From contig JAIEEQ010000031.1 in the NCBI GenBank assembly GCA_029067355.1, positions 1-58,616 of the forward strand: DNA of 58,616 nucleotides, written 5' to 3'. This document shows, in pieces, positions 1,880 through 10,895 of the stretch. The notes below the pieces were generated by a model. It worked only from the letters and a program-made list of their open reading frames with translations. It made no database searches and was not told the DNA's origin. The translations under genes and the position numbers were made by a program. The stretch comes from Anaeroplasmataceae bacterium. Lineage in GTDB: Bacteria; Bacillota_I; Bacilli_A; Acholeplasmatales; Anaeroplasmataceae. Within the stretch, counting starts at the first letter, position 1. Each line of letters starts with the position of its first letter.

Positions 1880-1912
1880 TTGGCACTTTTTTAGCACTTG
1901 AAATGCTATAAT
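1880..1912 (+). promoter_or_regulatory. Promoter box with tandem heptamers (copy 1)
   Basis: TTGGCAC (1880-1886) and TTAGCAC (1891-1897) are direct repeats with 11-bp periodicity. A 9-nt gap separates them from an extended -10, TGC-TATAAT (TATAAT at 1907-1912). No normal -35 exists at 17 bp. The same layout recurs at 5927-5959. Tandem heptamers one helical turn apart just upstream of -10 are how SARP/OmpR-type winged-helix activators are known to bind, and both regulators downstream carry such a domain. I infer that this is their operator. Confidence 0.6.
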
Positions 1913-1941
1913 CCTTCTATATTTTTTAGGAGGATTAAGGT

Positions 1942-4900
1942 ATGAAAAAAAGAATAATTTTTATAGCAGTGCTAAGTTTAGCATTATGTTTTTTCTTTAG
2001 TTGTAAAGAAAAAGACACACCTAATGAAGATGATAATCCACCAGTTGTGAATCCACCTGGAACAGAGCATACACATACTTGGGGAAACTGGCAGGAATCA
2101 AAGAAAGCTACCTGTACTGAAGCAGGAGAAAAAACACGAAAGTGTAATAGCTGTAATCAAGCAGAAACAGAGGTGATTCCTGCATTAAATCATAATTTTA
2201 AAGATGGATATTGTACACGCTGTACTGAAATTGATCCAACAAATACAGAAATGGTTGATGGAAGAGAATTTGTTTCTGTAATAGTTTCTAATAGTGGTGT
2301 ATTATCTTTTAGCAGATTAAAATGTGCTAGTAAATATGTTTTAACTATTTCTAATGCAAGTGAGGAAAAAAGAACAATTGAACTTGATAAAACACAGGGC
2401 TCCTATTCCTTAGAAAGTCTTCCTGCGGGAAGAACAATGGTTACTTTGACAGCTTATGAGAAGCTTGAAATTAAGGTGGAGAATGAAACACATTATCAGG
2501 ACGTTCCTATTTCAACCGCAACAGATGAATTTAGAATTACAAAAGTAAATAATACCTATACTTTGCAAAGACTAAAATATACAGATGAATATATTACCCT
2601 AGAAGGATTCTATGATGAACCTAGAACAGATAGTCAAACAAAAGAAGCATATTATTTATATGAAACGATTTATAAAGCACCTTCTTTAAGTAGTATAATG
2701 AATAACTCTCATATCAAGAATGACAAGAATTTCAAGTTAAAGGATTCTTCAAAATATAAATTAGTTTATTATGAAAGTAATGGAACAACCTCCTTTACTT
2801 TAGGAGCAAATCATTATATGAATGTAGAAAGAGCTTCCTATATGAAATATTATATTGCGGTGGTTGAAAAGGATACAGAAATTGAAGTGAAAAGATATCC
2901 AATTAAAACCTATGGACTAACAACGGCTGAAATAGAATTTAAGCAACTGACAATTACTGAAGAAAATGGAATACGTCAAGTAGAAACAAAAGATTTATTA
3001 AATAGTCCTATATCTATGACAGAAGGAGATATCTTACCTAATCAGCAAATCTATACTTCAAGTATAGAAGAGGGACTTCTTGCTAGAACGAGTCTTTATT
3101 CTGTAATTGAAAGAGATGAGGACTTAGTAGTTCCAGCTTCTAATGCAAGCAGTAAGGTAATCCTTTATTTCTACGAAGAAGAATTGGTAAGAGAGGATTG
3201 CCAGGAATATGAAAATATTTCTAAAGAGTTTAATCTTACTGAAAGTGAATATGGTTGGACTTTACGTGCAATAACTCAAGAAAAGAATGTAACAATTCCA
3301 GCCTATATTGTTGGAAAGCCTGTTGTGAGTGCTAGTTTTTATAACTCACCTTTAGAAACCCTAACCTTATCAGAAGGAATTACTATGTGGATCGTTTCTT
3401 TAAATGATTGTGCGAATATAGAAAAAATTGTACTGCCAAGTACAATAACTTATATGGGATACCAATCATTTAATGGTGTTAGAAGAGGCTGTGAAATTTA
3501 TTGTAATTTCTCTAAATCCAAAGGAGATTCCTTTGTTACTAACTGGAATCAAATTGCAGGGTCTTTCTATACATATGATACCTATTATATTGATACACCA
3601 ATCATAAAGGATGGATGTCAAGTACAAATCCTTGATGGTAAGGGTGTAATTACAGGATATACAGATGAGTTTATGGGGACATTCCCAGAAAGTGTATCTT
3701 TTGGATTGAAAGAATATCCGATATTTGAAATTAGATTCTTTGGTTTTTCTGATTTTGAGAGTTTACATATTCCTGATGGAATAAAAATAATAGGAGATAA
3801 TGCTTTTGCTGATTATAATAATTTAGTAAATATTACTATTCCTAATAGCATAACCAATATAGGAAATAATGCCTTTGCTGGTTGCAGCAGTTTAACAAAT
3901 GTTTATTTTGAAGGCAGTATAGAGGATTGGTGTCAAATTCAGTTTAGCACACTAGATTCAAATCCAATGGCTTATGCTAGTCATTTCTATTTGAAGAATA
4001 CAAATAATCAGTGGCAAGAGCTTACTCATATAGAAATACCAGATACTATATCAGAAATTGGTAGCTATCAATTCAATGGCTTTAATAATGTTTTATCCAT
4101 AGAAATATCAAATAGTGTAACCAATATAGGATCATCTGCTTTTCTTAATTGTAACAAATTAATAGAAATCTATAATTTTTCTGATTTGAACATAACAATT
4201 GGAAGTGCGAATTATGGATATATTGGGTATTATGCAAAAGCTATTCATACAGTACCAGAAGAAAGTAACTTAGTAGAAAAAGATGATTTTTTATTTATCA
4301 AAGGGAATGATAATGTATATTCCTTGATAGCTTATATGGGAAAGAATACAGAAATTGTATTCCCTAATGATATAAATGGAAACACGTATGTAATTCAGTC
4401 CTCTATTTTTGAAAATGATGAAAATCTAACTAGTGTTACCTTGTCAACAGGTGTTACAGGCATAGGGGTCTCAGCATTTAAAAATTGCGAGAATCTTACA
4501 ACAGTAGTCATTCCAAGTAGTACAACAACGATTGACTCATCTGTTTTTTCTGGATGTAATAATATAAATATGCTCTCAATCCCTATAAGCTTGTCATCTT
4601 ATTTTACCAAAAGTAATTTACGACAAATCATTATAACTGAGGCTGAAAGCATTAAAGCAAATGCATTTTCAAATTGTACGAACCTTAAAAACATAATGAT
4701 TCCATCAGGAGTTAAAACCATAGAAAGTAAGGCATTTTATAATTGCAAGCAGCTAACAAATGTTTATTTTGAGGGAAGTATAGAGGATTGGTGTCAAATT
4801 CAGTTTAGCACACTTGAATCTAATCCAATGTATTATGCTAGTCATTTTTATTTGCGAAATAGTATTCATAACTGGGAGGAAATAAAAAGTATAGAAATAC

Positions 4901-5886
4901 CAGATACCATAACAAAAATTGGTAATTATCAGTTTTATGGATTCAGTTATCTTACTTCAGTAAAATTTTCAGATCAACTAGAAAGTATAGGGAATAATGC
5001 TTTTGCGAATTGTAGTAATATAGGAAGTGTCATTCTTCCAAATGTTAGTAGTGTGGGTAATAATGCTTTTGAAAATTGTAGGAGTTTAGAAATCTTAGAA
5101 ATTCCAAAGGTAACTGCTTTAGGAGAAGCTGCTTTTTCCAATTGTGGAAATCTAATAAAAATTTCAGTTTCAGCAAACTATTTAGCTTCCATAGAAAAAA
5201 GCAAATTAGAAGAAGTCATCATTACCAGTGGAGAAATTATTGAAAGAGATGCATTTAAAGATTGTACTAATTTAACTAATATTACATTGGCATCCAGTAT
5301 AACGACTATAAATCAGTCTTTTCTACAACATTCAATACATCTTTACTATGAAGGAAGCATAGAGAGCTGGTGCAATATAAATATACCAGATGGACTCACA
5401 GGGTATCCTATACAATTTTATTTGAGAAATGCAAATTTGGAATGGGAAGAGGTAACAAATTTAGAAATACCAGATAGTATAACCAAAATAGGTAGTTACC
5501 AGTTTGTAAATTTTATTTATATTACTTCAGTGGAATTATCAAATCATTTAGAAATTATTGGTTACAATGCTTTTACGGGTTGTGCTATTAGCAGTCTTAT
5601 TATTCCTAAGGGAGTTACAACACTAAACGAATCATTTAGCTATTGTAAAAATTTAGAAACTATAATTCTTCCAAAAAGTATAAAGGAGGTCGTTGCAGCC
5701 TTTGATGGATGTCCAAACTCAAAAAAAATATATTATGAAGGAACAGCAGAAGACTGGAAAAAAGTTACAATAACATCCAATTCTAGCAGTGATAGGTACA
5801 CAGTATATTATTATAGTGAGGACAAACCTGTCTTGCATGGAAATTATTGGCATTATGTGGATGGAGTTTTAAAAGAGTGGGAGTAA
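1942..5886 (+). CDS. Giant BspA-like leucine-rich-repeat surface lipoprotein
   Basis: A 1314-residue lipoprotein. An N-terminal hydrophobic signal ends in FFFSC, placing the lipidated Cys at residue 21. Then come an acidic Pro-rich spacer and a Cys-rich HTWGNW...CTEAGEKTRKCNSC segment (about 45-95) common in surface proteins of gut Firmicutes. From about residue 455 to 1290 lie BspA-type (LRR_5) repeats with the IPDTIxxIGxxxFxxF signature. A longer unit containing YFEGSIEDWCQIQF is repeated, with the two best copies almost identical at DNA level. BspA-like repeats usually mediate adhesion or host contact. The start has AGGAGG 8 nt upstream. It is transcribed alone from the heptamer promoter and ends in a strong terminator, next to a two-component locus sharing that promoter. 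Confidence 0.85.
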   Translation: MKKRIIFIAVLSLALCFFFSCKEKDTPNEDDNPPVVNPPGTEHTHTWGNWQESKKATCTEAGEKTRKCNSCNQAETEVIPALNHNFKDGYCTRCTEIDPTNTEMVDGREFVSVIVSNSGVLSFSRLKCASKYVLTISNASEEKRTIELDKTQGSYSLESLPAGRTMVTLTAYEKLEIKVENETHYQDVPISTATDEFRITKVNNTYTLQRLKYTDEYITLEGFYDEPRTDSQTKEAYYLYETIYKAPSLSSIMNNSHIKNDKNFKLKDSSKYKLVYYESNGTTSFTLGANHYMNVERASYMKYYIAVVEKDTEIEVKRYPIKTYGLTTAEIEFKQLTITEENGIRQVETKDLLNSPISMTEGDILPNQQIYTSSIEEGLLARTSLYSVIERDEDLVVPASNASSKVILYFYEEELVREDCQEYENISKEFNLTESEYGWTLRAITQEKNVTIPAYIVGKPVVSASFYNSPLETLTLSEGITMWIVSLNDCANIEKIVLPSTITYMGYQSFNGVRRGCEIYCNFSKSKGDSFVTNWNQIAGSFYTYDTYYIDTPIIKDGCQVQILDGKGVITGYTDEFMGTFPESVSFGLKEYPIFEIRFFGFSDFESLHIPDGIKIIGDNAFADYNNLVNITIPNSITNIGNNAFAGCSSLTNVYFEGSIEDWCQIQFSTLDSNPMAYASHFYLKNTNNQWQELTHIEIPDTISEIGSYQFNGFNNVLSIEISNSVTNIGSSAFLNCNKLIEIYNFSDLNITIGSANYGYIGYYAKAIHTVPEESNLVEKDDFLFIKGNDNVYSLIAYMGKNTEIVFPNDINGNTYVIQSSIFENDENLTSVTLSTGVTGIGVSAFKNCENLTTVVIPSSTTTIDSSVFSGCNNINMLSIPISLSSYFTKSNLRQIIITEAESIKANAFSNCTNLKNIMIPSGVKTIESKAFYNCKQLTNVYFEGSIEDWCQIQFSTLESNPMYYASHFYLRNSIHNWEEIKSIEIPDTITKIGNYQFYGFSYLTSVKFSDQLESIGNNAFANCSNIGSVILPNVSSVGNNAFENCRSLEILEIPKVTALGEAAFSNCGNLIKISVSANYLASIEKSKLEEVIITSGEIIERDAFKDCTNLTNITLASSITTINQSFLQHSIHLYYEGSIESWCNINIPDGLTGYPIQFYLRNANLEWEEVTNLEIPDSITKIGSYQFVNFIYITSVELSNHLEIIGYNAFTGCAISSLIIPKGVTTLNESFSYCKNLETIILPKSIKEVVAAFDGCPNSKKIYYEGTAEDWKKVTITSNSSSDRYTVYYYSEDKPVLHGNYWHYVDGVLKEWE
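3901..4856 (+). repeat. Pair of near-identical 95-bp direct repeats inside the BspA-like gene
   Basis: The stretch 3901-3995 recurs at 4762-4856 with only a few substitutions. It encodes the YFEGSIEDWCQIQF unit. A third, more diverged copy begins near 5342. The spacing suggests duplication of a block of about 860 bp, which could allow repeat-number variation by recombination. Confidence 0.75.
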
Positions 5887-5894
5887 ATGAAATT

Positions 5895-5924
5895 GGGTAA
5901 TGGAGAAATCCATTATCCTTTTTT
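5895..5924 (+). terminator. Rho-independent terminator of the BspA-like gene
   Basis: A 10-bp stem (5895-5904 with 5909-5918, one G-U pair) closed by a GAAA tetraloop, then six T residues. Confidence 0.9.
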
Positions 5925-5926
5925 CT

Positions 5927-5959
5927 TTGGCACTTTTTTAGCACTCAAAATGCTAGAAT
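5927..5959 (+). promoter_or_regulatory. Promoter box with tandem heptamers (copy 2)
   Basis: TTGGCAC (5927-5933), four T residues, TTAGCAC (5938-5944), a 9-nt gap and TGC-TAGAAT (-10 at 5954-5959). Apart from four bases it matches the box at 1880-1912. Because it precedes a regulator gene, autoregulation is likely. Confidence 0.6.
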
Positions 5960-5991: not shown

Positions 5992-6786
5992 ATGAAGGTT
6001 TTAATTATTGATGATGATTTAGCATCTTTGTCTTGTTTTTTAGAGTCTTTTGTAAATGAATATACAATTGAATACAAATTCTTTAAAGAACATCCTTTAG
6101 ATACATTGACCTACATCAAAGAAAATGACGTAGATGGAGCTTTTATTAGTATAAACCTTTCCTCTATTGGAGGAATCGAGCTTGCTGAAAAACTAGTTGA
6201 AATTAGAAGAGATTTAAAGGTTGTTTTTATAGGTGATCCTATCTTTATATTCAGTGAAAGTTTAAAAGAAAATGTATTAGGCGTATGCGATAGACCTCTA
6301 GTATCAAAACAGATAGAATATTATTTGAAAAGTATGCAGATTCAGAAAAAGAAAAGAATATATATTCATACCTTTGGAACATTTGATGTTTTTATCAATC
6401 AGCAGATTGTAAAATTTAAATCTGCCAAATCAAAGGAGCTTTTGGCATTATTAATAACCTATAATGGAAAATCATTGTATATGTCTGATGCTATATGTCA
6501 TCTTTGGCCTGACAAGGATATTGAACGCGCAAAAAGATTATACAGAGATGCTGTTTGGAAGCTTAGAAAGACAATGATAGAATATAATATTTTTCACATT
6601 ATAGAGTTTAAAAGAGCTCAACTGTTCTTGCATAAAGAAAATATAGAGTGTGATTATTGGAAATATCTAAAACAAGCTAATACAAATTATAATGGAATTT
6701 TTTTACCTAGCTATGATTGGTCAATTGAGTTTCAGTTAGAATTAGATACAATTGAGATGAAAAGAAAATATCAATTGAAATCCTAG
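5992..6786 (+). CDS. Pseudo-receiver response regulator with SARP/OmpR-like DNA-binding domain
   Basis: About 264 residues: CheY-like receiver (1-115) and winged-helix output domain (about 128-215, FGTFDVF...KSKELLALLI...WPD...LRK) of the SARP/Trans_reg_C type. It is a clear paralogue of the regulator at 8678. The acidic pocket (IIDDD) remains, but the phosphoacceptor Asp is Ser (GAFISIN against GAFLDIN), the conserved Thr is Gly (FIG against FIT) and the Lys is Arg (CDRP against CYKP). It should therefore act without phosphorylation. ATG 5992 is preferred over 5986, because AGGAG at 5978-5982 is better spaced and the N-terminus then matches the paralogue. Confidence 0.85.
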   Translation: MKVLIIDDDLASLSCFLESFVNEYTIEYKFFKEHPLDTLTYIKENDVDGAFISINLSSIGGIELAEKLVEIRRDLKVVFIGDPIFIFSESLKENVLGVCDRPLVSKQIEYYLKSMQIQKKKRIYIHTFGTFDVFINQQIVKFKSAKSKELLALLITYNGKSLYMSDAICHLWPDKDIERAKRLYRDAVWKLRKTMIEYNIFHIIEFKRAQLFLHKENIECDYWKYLKQANTNYNGIFLPSYDWSIEFQLELDTIEMKRKYQLKS

Positions 6787-6831
6787 TCTTTTTTAAAGAA
6801 GCATAGTATAATAAGGCTGAGGTGTGTGGAA

Positions 6832-8700
6832 ATGAAAAGGCTTAAAGTGATTTTAATTTTTATAGTTTCTTTTTTTTGTTTATGCCTTGGATTTTCTATT
6901 GCATTAGTGATTTCTGTTTTTAATCATGAATTGTATCACTATCCTGCGAATGTATATGGGTGTATAAATTTTGAAGGATATGACTTAAATCAAAAGCGAT
7001 CTCATTCTATAAATATGACTGGAGAGTGGGAATTTTATTATAATCGTTGGATTATAACAGATAGTGACAAAGAGCAAATGGATGCTTATATTAAGATTCC
7101 TGGCAAATGGACAGGATTAAAAGCTAATAATTGTGTCTTAGGAAAAGAAGGATACGCTTCCTATAAGACAACATTAATTAACCTTCCAAAGGGAACCAAG
7201 CTTTGTCCAACCTATCAGAGCGGAGGTGGGGATTCTGCCTATCGTGTTTACTACAATAAGATTTTAGTTGGATATACAGGGACCGCTTCAAAAAATATAA
7301 AGGAAACAAAAAACGGCTTTAAAATGGATTTTGATTCTTATTATGAGGTTCCTGATGATGGAATAGTAGAGGTTGTCATAGAGATAGGTATGAATAGACA
7401 TGGTGGGATTACGCAAATGCCAGGTGTAATAACTGATGGATATAGCGGATATTATCAAACCTTTGTCAGTTTTTTTCCAAGCTTTGTTTTAGGACTTATT
7501 TTCTTTTCAGCACTTATTGGAGTTTGTATCAATTATTCATATCGTACCTTAGGGGATCGATTTTCTATATTTAGTATAATTATGTTATTATTGATTCACT
7601 ATCTTTTTTCTATTGATATGATTAATTTATTTAGAAATTTAAATATTCGCACAAATTTCTATTTATTTCAATGCTTATCCTTTATATCCTATGTTTTGTT
7701 ATTAAGACAACTTGCTAGATACGTTTTTAGAATTAAAGAAGTAGAGTATTTAAAGCTGTATCACAAAGTTTACTCCTTTATAGGAATTCCATTATTTATA
7801 TTAGACATTGGCTTGATTGGCACCAACGTTCAGTGGATTTCTTGGATATTATTATTTTTATTTACATTACCTTATTATATAGGCTTGGCAGCTGGTGTGA
7901 TTCATCAACGAAAAAACAGCCCATATTTCTTTATTTTATTTTCTGTAATTATAGATATGGGTATTGTGGAAATGATGGATATATCTGAGATGATCCTTTA
8001 TAGTTCTTATGGCTATGAGGCTATCTTTTGTACTATTCTTATGTCCATTGTTTTCTTTTTATACTTCTCACGTATAAAGGATTTAAATAAGGGTGAAGTA
8101 GAGCATGTCCTGTTTAAACAGGAAATATTAAGAGAACAAATCAAACCTCATTTTATCTTTAATTCTTTAAATGCAATTAAAAATCTCTACCATAAAAATG
8201 TGGCTGCTGGAGATGAAGCAATGATACGCTTTTCTAAGCATTTAAGAACAAATGTAGATGCCTTAGACCATGATATGATTCCTTTTGAGGATGAGCTTGT
8301 AAACATTATTAACTATGTTGAATTAGAAAATATAAGATTGGATAAGCCCTTTACCTTATTGCTAGATATTCAATATCAGGATTTCTTTGTGCCTGTTCTT
8401 TCCTTACAGCCTTTGGTTGAAAATGCCATTAAATATAGCATGGTTAATGAAAAAGAAGATGGATATATACAGGTAATCTCTTATAAGAAGGAAGATTTTA
8501 TTTATATAATAGTATCAGACAATGGAACAGGCTTTGAAGTTCATAAGATTCCTCAAGGCTCAAAGGGAATTTCTAATTTGAAAGAGCGTTTTAGTCTAAT
8601 GCTAGATGCAGATGTGCTTATTAAAAGTAAAGCAAAAGAAGGAACTATGGTTACAATCATTTTCAAGGAGAAGAAAGATGAAGATAATAGTAGTGGATGA
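6832..8700 (+). CDS. 7TM sensor histidine kinase, LytS/YesM (His_kinase) family
   Basis: About 622 residues. One N-terminal membrane anchor (5-30) precedes an extracytoplasmic beta-sandwich-like domain (about 55-200). Seven hydrophobic segments (about 210-412) follow, the layout of 7TMR-DISM sensors. The cytoplasmic part has the H-box REQIKPHFIFNSLN (His440), the N-box LQPLVENAIKYS (Asn531) and DNGTGF (563-568). It should phosphorylate the overlapping regulator. The ATG at 6832 follows GAGGTG at 6819-6824. The 3' end overlaps the regulator gene by 23 nt. The ligand is unknown; beta-sandwich DISM domains often bind carbohydrates. Confidence 0.85.
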   Translation: MKRLKVILIFIVSFFCLCLGFSIALVISVFNHELYHYPANVYGCINFEGYDLNQKRSHSINMTGEWEFYYNRWIITDSDKEQMDAYIKIPGKWTGLKANNCVLGKEGYASYKTTLINLPKGTKLCPTYQSGGGDSAYRVYYNKILVGYTGTASKNIKETKNGFKMDFDSYYEVPDDGIVEVVIEIGMNRHGGITQMPGVITDGYSGYYQTFVSFFPSFVLGLIFFSALIGVCINYSYRTLGDRFSIFSIIMLLLIHYLFSIDMINLFRNLNIRTNFYLFQCLSFISYVLLLRQLARYVFRIKEVEYLKLYHKVYSFIGIPLFILDIGLIGTNVQWISWILLFLFTLPYYIGLAAGVIHQRKNSPYFFILFSVIIDMGIVEMMDISEMILYSSYGYEAIFCTILMSIVFFLYFSRIKDLNKGEVEHVLFKQEILREQIKPHFIFNSLNAIKNLYHKNVAAGDEAMIRFSKHLRTNVDALDHDMIPFEDELVNIINYVELENIRLDKPFTLLLDIQYQDFFVPVLSLQPLVENAIKYSMVNEKEDGYIQVISYKKEDFIYIIVSDNGTGFEVHKIPQGSKGISNLKERFSLMLDADVLIKSKAKEGTMVTIIFKEKKDEDNSSG

Positions 8701-9472
8701 TGAGATTATTGCCTTGTCTGATTTTTTGGTTGAGGTTGTAAATGATATAAAAATTGAATATAAATTCTTTTTAGATAACCCATTGGATACCATTGAATAT
8801 GTGAAAAGCCATGATGTTTCAGGAGCCTTTTTGGATATCAATATGCCTAAAATAAATGGTGTTGAACTGGCAAGAAAATTAGCTTTTGTAGCTCCAAAAT
8901 TGAAAATTGTCTTTATAACAGCCTATACGCATGATGAGAAAGCTATAAAAGAAATGCTGGGGATGAATTTATTAGGATTCTGTTATAAGCCCTTTTTAGC
9001 CTATGATGTGAATTGCTATATTGAACAAATGTATGCTTCAAAGAGGGATAATGAGATTAAGGCTGTTACCTTTGGAACCTTTGATGTATTTGTACATCGT
9101 AATGTGGTCAAGTTTTCGTCCTTTAAATCCAAAGAGCTTTTGGCACTATTGATTACATATAACGGAAAATCCTTGACTATGTCTGATGCAATATGCCATT
9201 TATGGCCAGATAAGCCTCTTGATTTGGCTAAAAGCTTATATCGTGATGCTGTATGGAGATTAAGAAAAACTCTAAAGGATTATCATATAGAACAAATCGT
9301 GGAATTCAGAAGAGCCTTATTAATTTTAAATAAAAAAGATATAGAATGTGATTATTGGAACTATTTGGAGAAAAGGGATTCCTCCTATTTTGGACAATTT
9401 TTAACTAGCTATGACTGGTCCATAGAATATCAAAGAATTTTAGATGAAGATGCCATTTCATTAGCAATATAA
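8678..9472 (+). CDS. Response regulator, receiver plus SARP/OmpR-like output domain
   Basis: About 264 residues. The receiver is complete: VVDDE acidic pocket (D7, D8), phosphoacceptor D53 in GAFLDIN, T81 and K104. The output winged helix (about 125-215) is close to that of the regulator at 5992. ATG 8678 follows AAGGAG at 8665-8670 and overlaps the kinase gene. It is the evident partner of the kinase. The pseudo-receiver paralogue may share its DNA sites and act as a competitor, a constitutive activator or a heterodimer partner. Confidence 0.88.
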   Translation: MKIIVVDDEIIALSDFLVEVVNDIKIEYKFFLDNPLDTIEYVKSHDVSGAFLDINMPKINGVELARKLAFVAPKLKIVFITAYTHDEKAIKEMLGMNLLGFCYKPFLAYDVNCYIEQMYASKRDNEIKAVTFGTFDVFVHRNVVKFSSFKSKELLALLITYNGKSLTMSDAICHLWPDKPLDLAKSLYRDAVWRLRKTLKDYHIEQIVEFRRALLILNKKDIECDYWNYLEKRDSSYFGQFLTSYDWSIEYQRILDEDAISLAI

Positions 9473-9527: not shown

Positions 9528-10895
9528 TTATATAGTTAAATTACAGCATTTGAAGCTAAAGTCAATATAATTTGCAATTAATCTTACCTTAAACTTTTTT
9601 GTATTACAAAAAGCACAGGAACCCTCTGTATCTAAATCTCCAGGGAGTACAAATTTTATACATCTGAGTGTAACACTTTGACAGGTTGTGCCTGTAAGAG
9701 CAGGTATCGTAATTGTTTTCATTCCTCGAGTATGTTCCTCGTCATTGCAGTCAACTTCATCTAAAAGTATTGCCAAAGCAACTCTTTTATTTGGACAAAC
9801 ATCATTTAATGTTACGTCAAATTGGAAGATATGTCCTAATGGTTCTAAACCGATATCTCCTAAATCGAACTCTATTGAATCCTCACAGCCATTAATAGAT
9901 ACATCAATAGGTTCTGGACAAGGCTCAATAATAACATTAGAACAATCAATTTCAATACTTGGATTAGGGAAGGTTGCTGTATTTCCTTCATCGTCTGCAT
10001 AAGTTATGCTTTCATTTACTAAGGTTGTTCCAGTACAAACTCCATTATGTTGAACTGTAAATTCAAAGGTTGCCCCTTCACTTTGTGTAACGCCAAGATC
10101 ATCAATTCCCCATCTTACTGTGTTAGGATTGATTAAGGTAGCTGTTCCCTTTGACGGAGCAGATATTGCTGTAATTTTAAAACAGTCTGAGATGACATCT
10201 GTAACAATAATATTTGTTGCTCCTGGCTTGGTAATGTTATTTGCCAAATCCTCAAATAAATCCTCTAGCTCTGTATCATCTGGTGTAATTGCCACATATG
10301 CAGAGTCAGGATCGGATGACCATTCATTTAATGCTTGAACGTCAATTCCTCCGTTTCCAGAAAGCCCAATACAATAGATGATAACACCCTGAGCCTTTGC
10401 CTGAACAGTAACAGGTACAGGATTACCACCAGCAGTAGTAAGACCATCTGTAAACATAACCATGACCTTTGCGTTTGTGGAGGTCATATCAAATAATGCC
10501 AATGCCTTAGTAAAAGCATCCTCATGATTGGTAGCTCCACCAGCAGTCAATGAATCCACGGCTGTTTTTAAATCAGCTACTGAGGTAATTAATTGAGTAT
10601 TTTGTACGGCTGTATCAGCAAAGCTAACAATACCAATTTTACTCCCACTACCTATTTGTCCATCCTGTGTTCCGTCTGTTGCCTCATCAATGATGTCAAT
10701 AAATTTCTTAGCCCCTTGCTTTAAATTAGCTAGAGGGCTTCCAGCCATACTACCAGATCTGTCAAGTATTAAGACAATATCCGTAGGATTTGACACGATA
10801 TCTGGAGCTGCAGTTAAGGATAATCTTACATTAAAAGTTTCATTGCATTTTATACTCGTTTTGGTTATTTCCTTATTTGAAGCTGTTAATCCCAC
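9528..10895 (-). CDS. von Willebrand factor A domain protein
   Basis: 455 residues. The vWA domain (about 38-225) has an intact MIDAS: DRSGS (D45, S47, S49), the Thr of GGATNHEDA and the Asp of MFTDG. A DUF11-like beta domain follows (about 225-320), then a Cys-rich C-terminal domain (about 325-455). There is no signal peptide or anchor, so export is uncertain; similar vWA proteins without leader occur in many Firmicutes. The start is GTG at 10895, with AGGAGGA at 10901-10907. It is transcribed alone and away from the MarR-GNAT gene, with a perfect palindrome just upstream. Confidence 0.75.
   Translation of the reverse strand: MGLTASNKEITKTSIKCNETFNVRLSLTAAPDIVSNPTDIVLILDRSGSMAGSPLANLKQGAKKFIDIIDEATDGTQDGQIGSGSKIGIVSFADTAVQNTQLITSVADLKTAVDSLTAGGATNHEDAFTKALALFDMTSTNAKVMVMFTDGLTTAGGNPVPVTVQAKAQGVIIYCIGLSGNGGIDVQALNEWSSDPDSAYVAITPDDTELEDLFEDLANNITKPGATNIIVTDVISDCFKITAISAPSKGTATLINPNTVRWGIDDLGVTQSEGATFEFTVQHNGVCTGTTLVNESITYADDEGNTATFPNPSIEIDCSNVIIEPCPEPIDVSINGCEDSIEFDLGDIGLEPLGHIFQFDVTLNDVCPNKRVALAILLDEVDCNDEEHTRGMKTITIPALTGTTCQSVTLRCIKFVLPGDLDTEGSCAFCNTKKFKVRLIANYIDFSFKCCNLTI

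What the first reader, a model, noticed from the sequence alone, without database searches (positions are those of the whole stretch)
1880..5959. Identical heptamer promoter box controls a surface lipoprotein and a regulator
Two promoters 4 kb apart share TTGGCAC-TTTT-TTAGCAC, a 9-nt gap and an extended -10, with no -35. The repeat period of 11 bp and distance to -10 are those of SARP-type activator sites. The two regulators encoded downstream have SARP/OmpR-like output domains. The operator, its regulators and the regulated surface protein can thus be read from one window.
Basis: partly seen in the sequence, partly recalled or inferred. Interest (0 to 1): 0.7.

Follow-up and report, generated by a model that had tools for sequence, protein, structure and literature searches.

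The report
Private SARP-type switches for surface proteins
In a gut Mollicute, two identical promoter boxes let a two-component regulator of the antibiotic-regulator (SARP) type switch on one giant surface lipoprotein and its own operon, and related regulators in sister genomes each have their own matching box, so the regulator and its DNA word appear to evolve together.

Summary
TTGGCAC-TTTT-TTAGCAC lies at 1880-1897 and 5927-5944, nine bases before TGC-TATAAT / TGC-TAGAAT, with no -35. It precedes a BspA-type (LRR_5) lipoprotein and an RR1-kinase-RR2 operon. Across 160 genomes of the order the box occurs exactly twice in each of the seven genomes that carry this two-component system, at the same two promoters, and nowhere else. 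A paralogous module in four sister genomes has its own box (TTAACAC-N4-TTAACA[C/G]), again exactly twice per genome, before RR3 and another BspA lipoprotein. Other genera use GTTGCAN or GTC[A/C]CAT half-sites. The half-site class tracks the regulator's recognition helix without exception. In loci chosen only for the regulator gene, 44 promoters have an 11-bp repeat period and 0-6 have any other. The predicted output domain matches the SARPs AfsR and EmbR best (Z about 14, against 10 or less for PhoB-type domains), but the BTAD is truncated. RR1 is a conserved pseudo-receiver (Asp to Ser, Thr to Gly). Best reading: autoactivating, insulated SARP-type response-regulator modules that drive surface proteins. 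Sigma-54, CIRCE and inverted-repeat readings are rejected. DNA binding and activation are inferred, not shown.

The parts
1880..1897 (+). operator P1: half-sites TTGGCAC (1880-1886) and TTAGCAC (1891-1897), 11-bp period
   Evidence: conserved in 7 species
1904..1912 (+). extended -10 TGC-TATAAT of P1, no -35
   Evidence: TATAAT in 7 of 7 species
1942..5886 (+). BspA-type leucine-rich-repeat lipoprotein, 1314 aa (LRR_5, E 3e-106), target of P1
5895..5918 (+). intrinsic terminator (10-bp stem, TTTTTTCTTT tail) separating the lipoprotein gene from P2
5927..5944 (+). operator P2: half-sites TTGGCAC (5927-5933) and TTAGCAC (5938-5944)
5951..5959 (+). extended -10 TGC-TAGAAT of P2 (TAGAAT or TAAAAT in all 7 species, weaker than P1)
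5992..6786 (+). RR1: response regulator with a pseudo-receiver (phospho-Asp to Ser, Thr to Gly) and a SARP-like winged-helix output domain
6807..6812 (+). TATAAT conserved in 7 of 7 species between RR1 and the kinase; candidate internal promoter without operator
6832..8700 (+). membrane sensor histidine kinase (His_kinase PF06580 + HATPase_c), overlaps the RR2 start
8678..9472 (+). RR2: response regulator with intact receiver (D53, T81, K104) and SARP-like output domain

Best explanation
The two boxes are operators for the SARP-type response regulators of the adjacent RR1-kinase-RR2 operon. When the kinase is triggered, RR2 (and RR1, which has almost the same recognition helix) binds side by side on TTGGCAC-N4-TTAGCAC, centred near -28.5 (TSS assumed), in place of a -35 element. 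It recruits the housekeeping sigma to the extended -10. This turns on the BspA lipoprotein (P1) and feeds back on the regulator operon (P2). RR1, which cannot be phosphorylated by the usual route, would sustain or tune the response. Paralogous modules work the same way with their own half-sites, which keeps them insulated. Shown by sequence: the sites, their conservation and co-occurrence, helix/half-site matching, domain content and pseudo-receiver. Inferred: binding, activation rather than repression, dimer state, signal.
For: (1) The box plus -10 occurs exactly twice in 7 of 7 genomes with this TCS and in 0 of 153 others of the order. (2) The TTAACAC class occurs exactly twice in the 4 genomes with RR3 and in 0 of the 7 other congeners, before RR3 or another BspA lipoprotein where the downstream gene could be read; one G044 site lies at a contig end. 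(3) The TGTYRCA class occurs in 14 of 18 regulator-positive genomes and 0 of 26 negative ones in other genera (Fisher 2.7e-8). (4) Period scan in 35 loci chosen only by the regulator gene: 44 promoters at 11 bp, 0-6 at any other period from 6 to 30. (5) Half-site class matches recognition helix without crossing. (6) In 55 sites T2, C5 and A6 are invariant in both half-sites although not imposed by the search. (7) Closest folds of the output domain are EmbR Z 14.4 and AfsR Z 14.2 over 136-141 of 144 residues, ahead of all PhoB-type domains, Z 10.0 or less. (8) Box position and missing -35 agree with the AfsR mechanism.
Against: No binding, expression or transcription-start data. The RR-negative genomes may form clades, so the Fisher values are not corrected for phylogeny. 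Pfam's BTAD model is not among the listed matches for 27 relatives; only its first helices are aligned structurally. Four regulator-positive genomes outside the genus lack a site of the TGTYRCA pattern, and 12 of the 35 regulator loci show none nearby under strict criteria. Repression at the same site is not excluded by sequence.
Confidence: 0.87

Rival explanations
1. The boxes are operators of this RR family but act by repression: the regulator occludes the extended -10 promoter, and kinase signalling relieves it.
For: The site touches the region just upstream of the -10; an extended -10 can work without a -35. Site and regulator linkage is equally compatible.
Against: There is no usable -35 at any P1 spacing, and the box takes its place as in AfsR promoters. 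SARPs and PhoB activate from this position. Conserved weaker -10s at P2 suit an activator-dependent promoter.
Confidence: 0.09
2. A sigma-54 promoter: TTGGCAC-N5-TAGCA has GG at -24 and GC at -12 spacing.
For: GG-N10-GC spacing is exact and TTGGCAC equals the -24 consensus (established knowledge of sigma-54; box).
Against: No Sigma54_DBD (RpoN) in any of the 11 genus genomes; only one marginal hit in the family. The paralogous box TTAACAC lacks GG and GC while keeping the 11-bp repeat. An extended -10 is conserved downstream.
Confidence: 0.01
3. A dyad operator TAGCA-N7-TGCTA overlapping the -10, or a CIRCE half-site (TTAGCACTC), bound by another repressor.
For: TAGCA-N7-TGCTA is perfect at both window sites; P2 reads TTAGCACTC.
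Against: The right arm is not conserved (TGATA, TGGTA, TGTTA in orthologues) while the direct repeat is. The CIRCE second half is absent.
Confidence: 0.01
4. The boxes are shared by recent duplication of promoter DNA or by chance and have no regulatory role.
For: The two boxes in the window are identical.
Against: The 60 bp upstream of the two boxes are only 45% identical. The box is kept in 7 species while flanks scramble; 0 in 153 other genomes; chance count 0.10 in the window.
Confidence: 0.01

Closest known systems
SARP activators (AfsR, ActII-ORF4, EmbR): direct repeats with 11-bp period overlapping the -35 (PMC10936776, PMC10972967)
   Same: 11-bp direct repeats, 3' repeat 8-9 bp from the -10, missing or poor -35, OmpR-like winged helix; AfsR and EmbR are the best fold matches
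   Different: Fused behind a receiver domain, BTAD cut to its first helices, in Mollicutes, driving surface proteins rather than antibiotic genes
COG3947 REC-SARP response regulators (e.g. Deinococcus Deide_19260, PMC3564903)
   Same: Receiver followed by a SARP-type output domain
   Different: No operator is given for the Deinococcus protein in the passages read; here operator, private half-sites, autoregulation and a pseudo-receiver partner are read
PhoB pho box (CTGTCAT, 7+4+7, PMC4415409)
   Same: Tandem 7-bp half-sites every 11 bp; the T2-C5-A6 core of our half-sites also fits CTGTCAT
   Different: Different half-site bases, regulator fold closer to SARPs than to PhoB, no phosphate genes seen beside it
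CmrRST of Clostridioides difficile (PMC12548384)
   Same: RR-kinase-RR operon with one standard and one atypical receiver, one regulator autoregulating the operon
   Different: CmrR uses an inverted repeat; OmpR-family regulators; wide phenotype range

Membership tests
SARP family | OmpR-like winged-helix DNA-binding domain of SARP type | tested here: met
   AF2 model pLDDT 91.7; EmbR Z 14.4, AfsR Z 14.2 rank first, PhoB 10.0
SARP family | full BTAD (about 150 aa) after the DNA-binding domain | tested here: not met
   About 40 aa follow the wing; Pfam BTAD not among the listed matches of 27 relatives; only the first BTAD helices are aligned
SARP family | heptamer direct repeats every 11 bp, 3' repeat about 8 bp from the -10 | tested here: met
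SARP family | activates by engaging sigma region 4 at the -35 | not testable with these tools
   Position and missing -35 are consistent; needs biochemistry
REC-SARP response regulators (COG3947) | receiver plus SARP output in one chain, beside a histidine kinase | tested here: met
   Response_reg plus SARP-type fold, kinase overlapping RR2; the COG model itself was not available
REC-SARP response regulators (COG3947) | phospho-acceptor Asp in the receiver | tested here: met
   D53 in RR2 and all RRs examined outside the RR1 group; Ser in all RR1 orthologues, so RR1 alone fails
PhoB / pho box | CTGTCAT-N4-CTGTCAT half-sites and PhoB identity | tested here: not met
   Half-site bases differ; no PhoB NCBIfam model reaches its cut-off
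sigma-54 promoter | RpoN in the genome | tested here: not met
   0 of 11 genus genomes
CIRCE/HrcA | TTAGCACTC-N9-GAGTGCTAA | tested here: not met
   second half absent, first half not conserved at P2
BspA-like LRR lipoprotein | LRR_5 repeats and lipoprotein-like signal | tested here: met
   LRR_5 E 3e-106; N-terminus MKKRIIFIAVLSLALCFFFSC

The most novel reading that the evidence does not exclude
The conserved asymmetry of the box (TTGGCAC first, TTAGCA[C/G] second, 14 of 14 sites) is read by an obligate heterodimer of the phosphorylatable RR2 and the pseudo-receiver RR1, a side-by-side SARP heterodimer in which one subunit is always 'on' and the other carries the signal; the single-regulator RR3 module uses near-symmetric boxes.
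Probability: 0.15. Interest if true: 0.68.

Novelty: new variant of a known kind. Interest (0 to 1): 0.56.

Why it matters
It gives a complete operator-regulator-target set for a poorly studied Mollicute lineage. In the papers searched I found no such operator described for this lineage. Because sister modules with different half-sites and recognition helices sit in the same genomes, the family is a natural experiment on how paralogous regulators stay insulated and how an OmpR/SARP recognition helix reads DNA. It also provides a way to find surface proteins under this control: look for any 11-bp heptamer repeat before an extended -10. The truncated BTAD asks how little of that domain is needed for activation, and the pseudo-receiver adds a case to an open question on how such receivers are controlled.

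Tried and rejected
Sigma-54 promoter (no RpoN). CIRCE half-site and TAGCA-N7-TGCTA dyad (not conserved). Chance or promoter duplication. Full SARP with BTAD. Full-length RR2 fold searches were dominated by the receiver and said nothing on the output domain, so it was predicted alone. Of six clostridial loci with the same recognition helix (YRDAV), only L049 shows a clear box (TTAGCGC-N4-TTAGCGC, divergent from the kinase), so this is not used as support. The relaxed search for boxes in the site-less loci gave one plausible lead, TTGTCCC in L147. Literature searches for Anaeroplasma with BspA, and for BTAD response regulators in Firmicutes, returned no paper.
Full report
Observation. Each is TTGGCAC-TTTT-TTAGCAC, then nine bases ending in TGC, then a -10 (TATAAT at P1, TAGAAT at P2). 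No -35 exists at usual spacings of P1. The window has no other match with up to three mismatches and shuffles expect 0.10. The genome has no third exact match to TTGGCACN4TTAGCAC. P1 precedes a 1314-aa BspA-type leucine-rich-repeat lipoprotein. P2 lies behind a terminator (5895-5918) and precedes RR1, a membrane histidine kinase and RR2; kinase and RR2 overlap.

Organism. Relatives are MAGs of Anaeroplasmataceae, one named Anaeroplasma bactoclasticum. The genome has three regulators of this type: RR1, RR2 and RR3 on another contig.

Conservation and specificity. RR2-type regulators occur in 7 of 11 genus genomes. The box occurs exactly twice in each of these seven and not in the other four. 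With the -10 included, 160 genomes of the order give 14 hits, two in each of the seven, and none elsewhere, the reversed control being empty. In the seven species the upstream flanks of P1 are unalignable while the box keeps 17 of 18 columns. P1 always has TATAAT; P2 always has the weaker TAGAAT or TAAAAT.

Sister modules. A search for any heptamer repeat with an 11-bp period before an extended -10 found boxes of other sequence at the paralogous loci. RR3 has TTAACAC-N4-TTAACA[C/G]. Searched in the genus, this class occurs twice in each of the four genomes with RR3 and never in the other seven. Where the downstream gene could be read it is RR3 itself or a BspA-type lipoprotein; the three such lipoproteins scanned are LRR_5 (E below 1e-106). 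One G044 site lies at a contig end and its gene was not identified. In the window's genome that second lipoprotein is on contig C60. The genome has 109 LRR_5 matches, including very long open frames, so the boxes mark only a few members of this family. In other genera the half-sites are GTTGCAN and GTC[A/C]CAT. A pattern for them is found in 14 of 18 regulator-positive and 0 of 26 regulator-negative genomes (Fisher 2.7e-8, not corrected for phylogeny). Targets there include large secreted proteins, lipoproteins, a class-3 lipase and a mechanosensitive channel, so regulons are larger.

Statistics without circularity. In 35 loci chosen only because they hold a regulator gene, with the window left out, 44 promoters have heptamer repeats at 11 bp; other periods from 6 to 30 give 0-6. 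Over 55 sites the half-site positions T2, C5 and A6 are invariant in both copies, though the search did not ask for them. That set includes some loci fetched by motif, so it describes the family and is not a test.

Helix and half-site. YRDAVW[R/K]LRK goes with TT[G/A]GCAC; YR[H/Y]SRW with TTAACA[C/G]; YLRN..xD with GTTGCAN; NYL[T/S]KI with GTC[A/C]CAT. No locus crosses. RR1 and RR2 share the helix core, so both should read the same box.

Output domain. Pfam sees the receiver, and Trans_reg_C only below its cut-off; BTAD is not among the listed matches of 27 relatives. The profile of the output domain finds CssR first and AfsR next among solved chains, at weak E-values. Predicted alone (pLDDT 91.7), its best folds are EmbR (Z 14.4, 141 aligned, rmsd 2.7) and AfsR (Z 14.2, 136 aligned), then PhoB at 10.0 over 93 residues (Foldseek). 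The alignment runs into the start of the BTAD, where our protein ends. So the domain is SARP-type with a truncated BTAD.

Receiver domains. D53, T81 and K104 are present in RR2 and the other 20 receivers of the alignment outside the RR1 group. All six RR1 orthologues in it have Ser for Asp and Gly for Thr, and a seventh (L042) shows the same. RR1 is a conserved pseudo-receiver. A TATAAT conserved in seven of seven species lies between RR1 and the kinase (6807-6812). It may give basal kinase and RR2 independent of P2 (inference).

Mechanism. Published SARP promoters have repeats every 11 bp, the 3' repeat 8 bp from the -10, and the AfsR box centred at -29.5, where a side-by-side dimer engages sigma region 4 (PMC10936776). 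Ours is centred near -28.5 if the start lies 7 nt after the -10 (start assumed). I infer the same: kinase signal, RR2 activation, tandem binding, recruitment of RNA polymerase to an extended -10, expression of the lipoprotein and feedback on the operon. Shown: sites, co-occurrence, covariation, domains. Inferred: binding, sign of regulation, stoichiometry, role of RR1, signal.

Rivals. Sigma-54 fails for lack of RpoN and because the sister box lacks GG/GC. The dyad and CIRCE readings fail on conservation. Repression is the only live rival.

Known or new. SARP sites, REC-SARP regulators (COG3947, PMC3564903), pho boxes and RR-kinase-RR operons with an atypical receiver (CmrRST) are known. The combination here is a new variant of a known kind: truncated-BTAD regulators, private co-diverging operators, a pseudo-receiver in the loop and surface proteins as targets.

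Noticed in passing
6807-6812: TATAAT conserved in all seven species between RR1 and the kinase, about 20 nt before the kinase start, without an operator; candidate basal promoter for kinase and RR2.
   Followed up: partly
G000:C4, G042:C11, G051:C8, G047:C3: LRR_5 matches lie in giant open frames of 12,480 to 16,498 codons, candidates for some of the largest bacterial surface proteins.
   Followed up: no
5992-6786 and orthologues: RR1 receiver has Asp to Ser and Thr to Gly in every orthologue, Lys or Arg at the third site.
   Followed up: yes
L044 849-5080: In G051 the lipoprotein gene downstream of P1 is split into two overlapping frames (337 and 1075 codons); assembly error or phase variation not resolved.
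   Followed up: no
L049 1443-1460 (- strand): Clostridia locus with the same recognition helix has TTAGCGC-TTTT-TTAGCGC, 9 nt, TATAAT, divergent from the kinase-regulator pair.
   Followed up: partly
1398-1685: Open frame without early start ending in a Pro/Gln/Gly-rich tail (YPQYPQQPLMPGQYQG...); looks like the remnant of a truncated gene.
   Followed up: no
263-1210: Protein with a weak HipA_C match (E 2e-4, below cut-off).
   Followed up: no
9528-10895 (- strand): VWA-domain protein on the opposite strand, next to the end of RR2.
   Followed up: no
G012 (11 sites), G013 (6 sites): In another genus the TGTYRCA-class boxes form larger regulons that include secreted repeat proteins, lipoproteins and proteins of unknown function.
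   Followed up: partly
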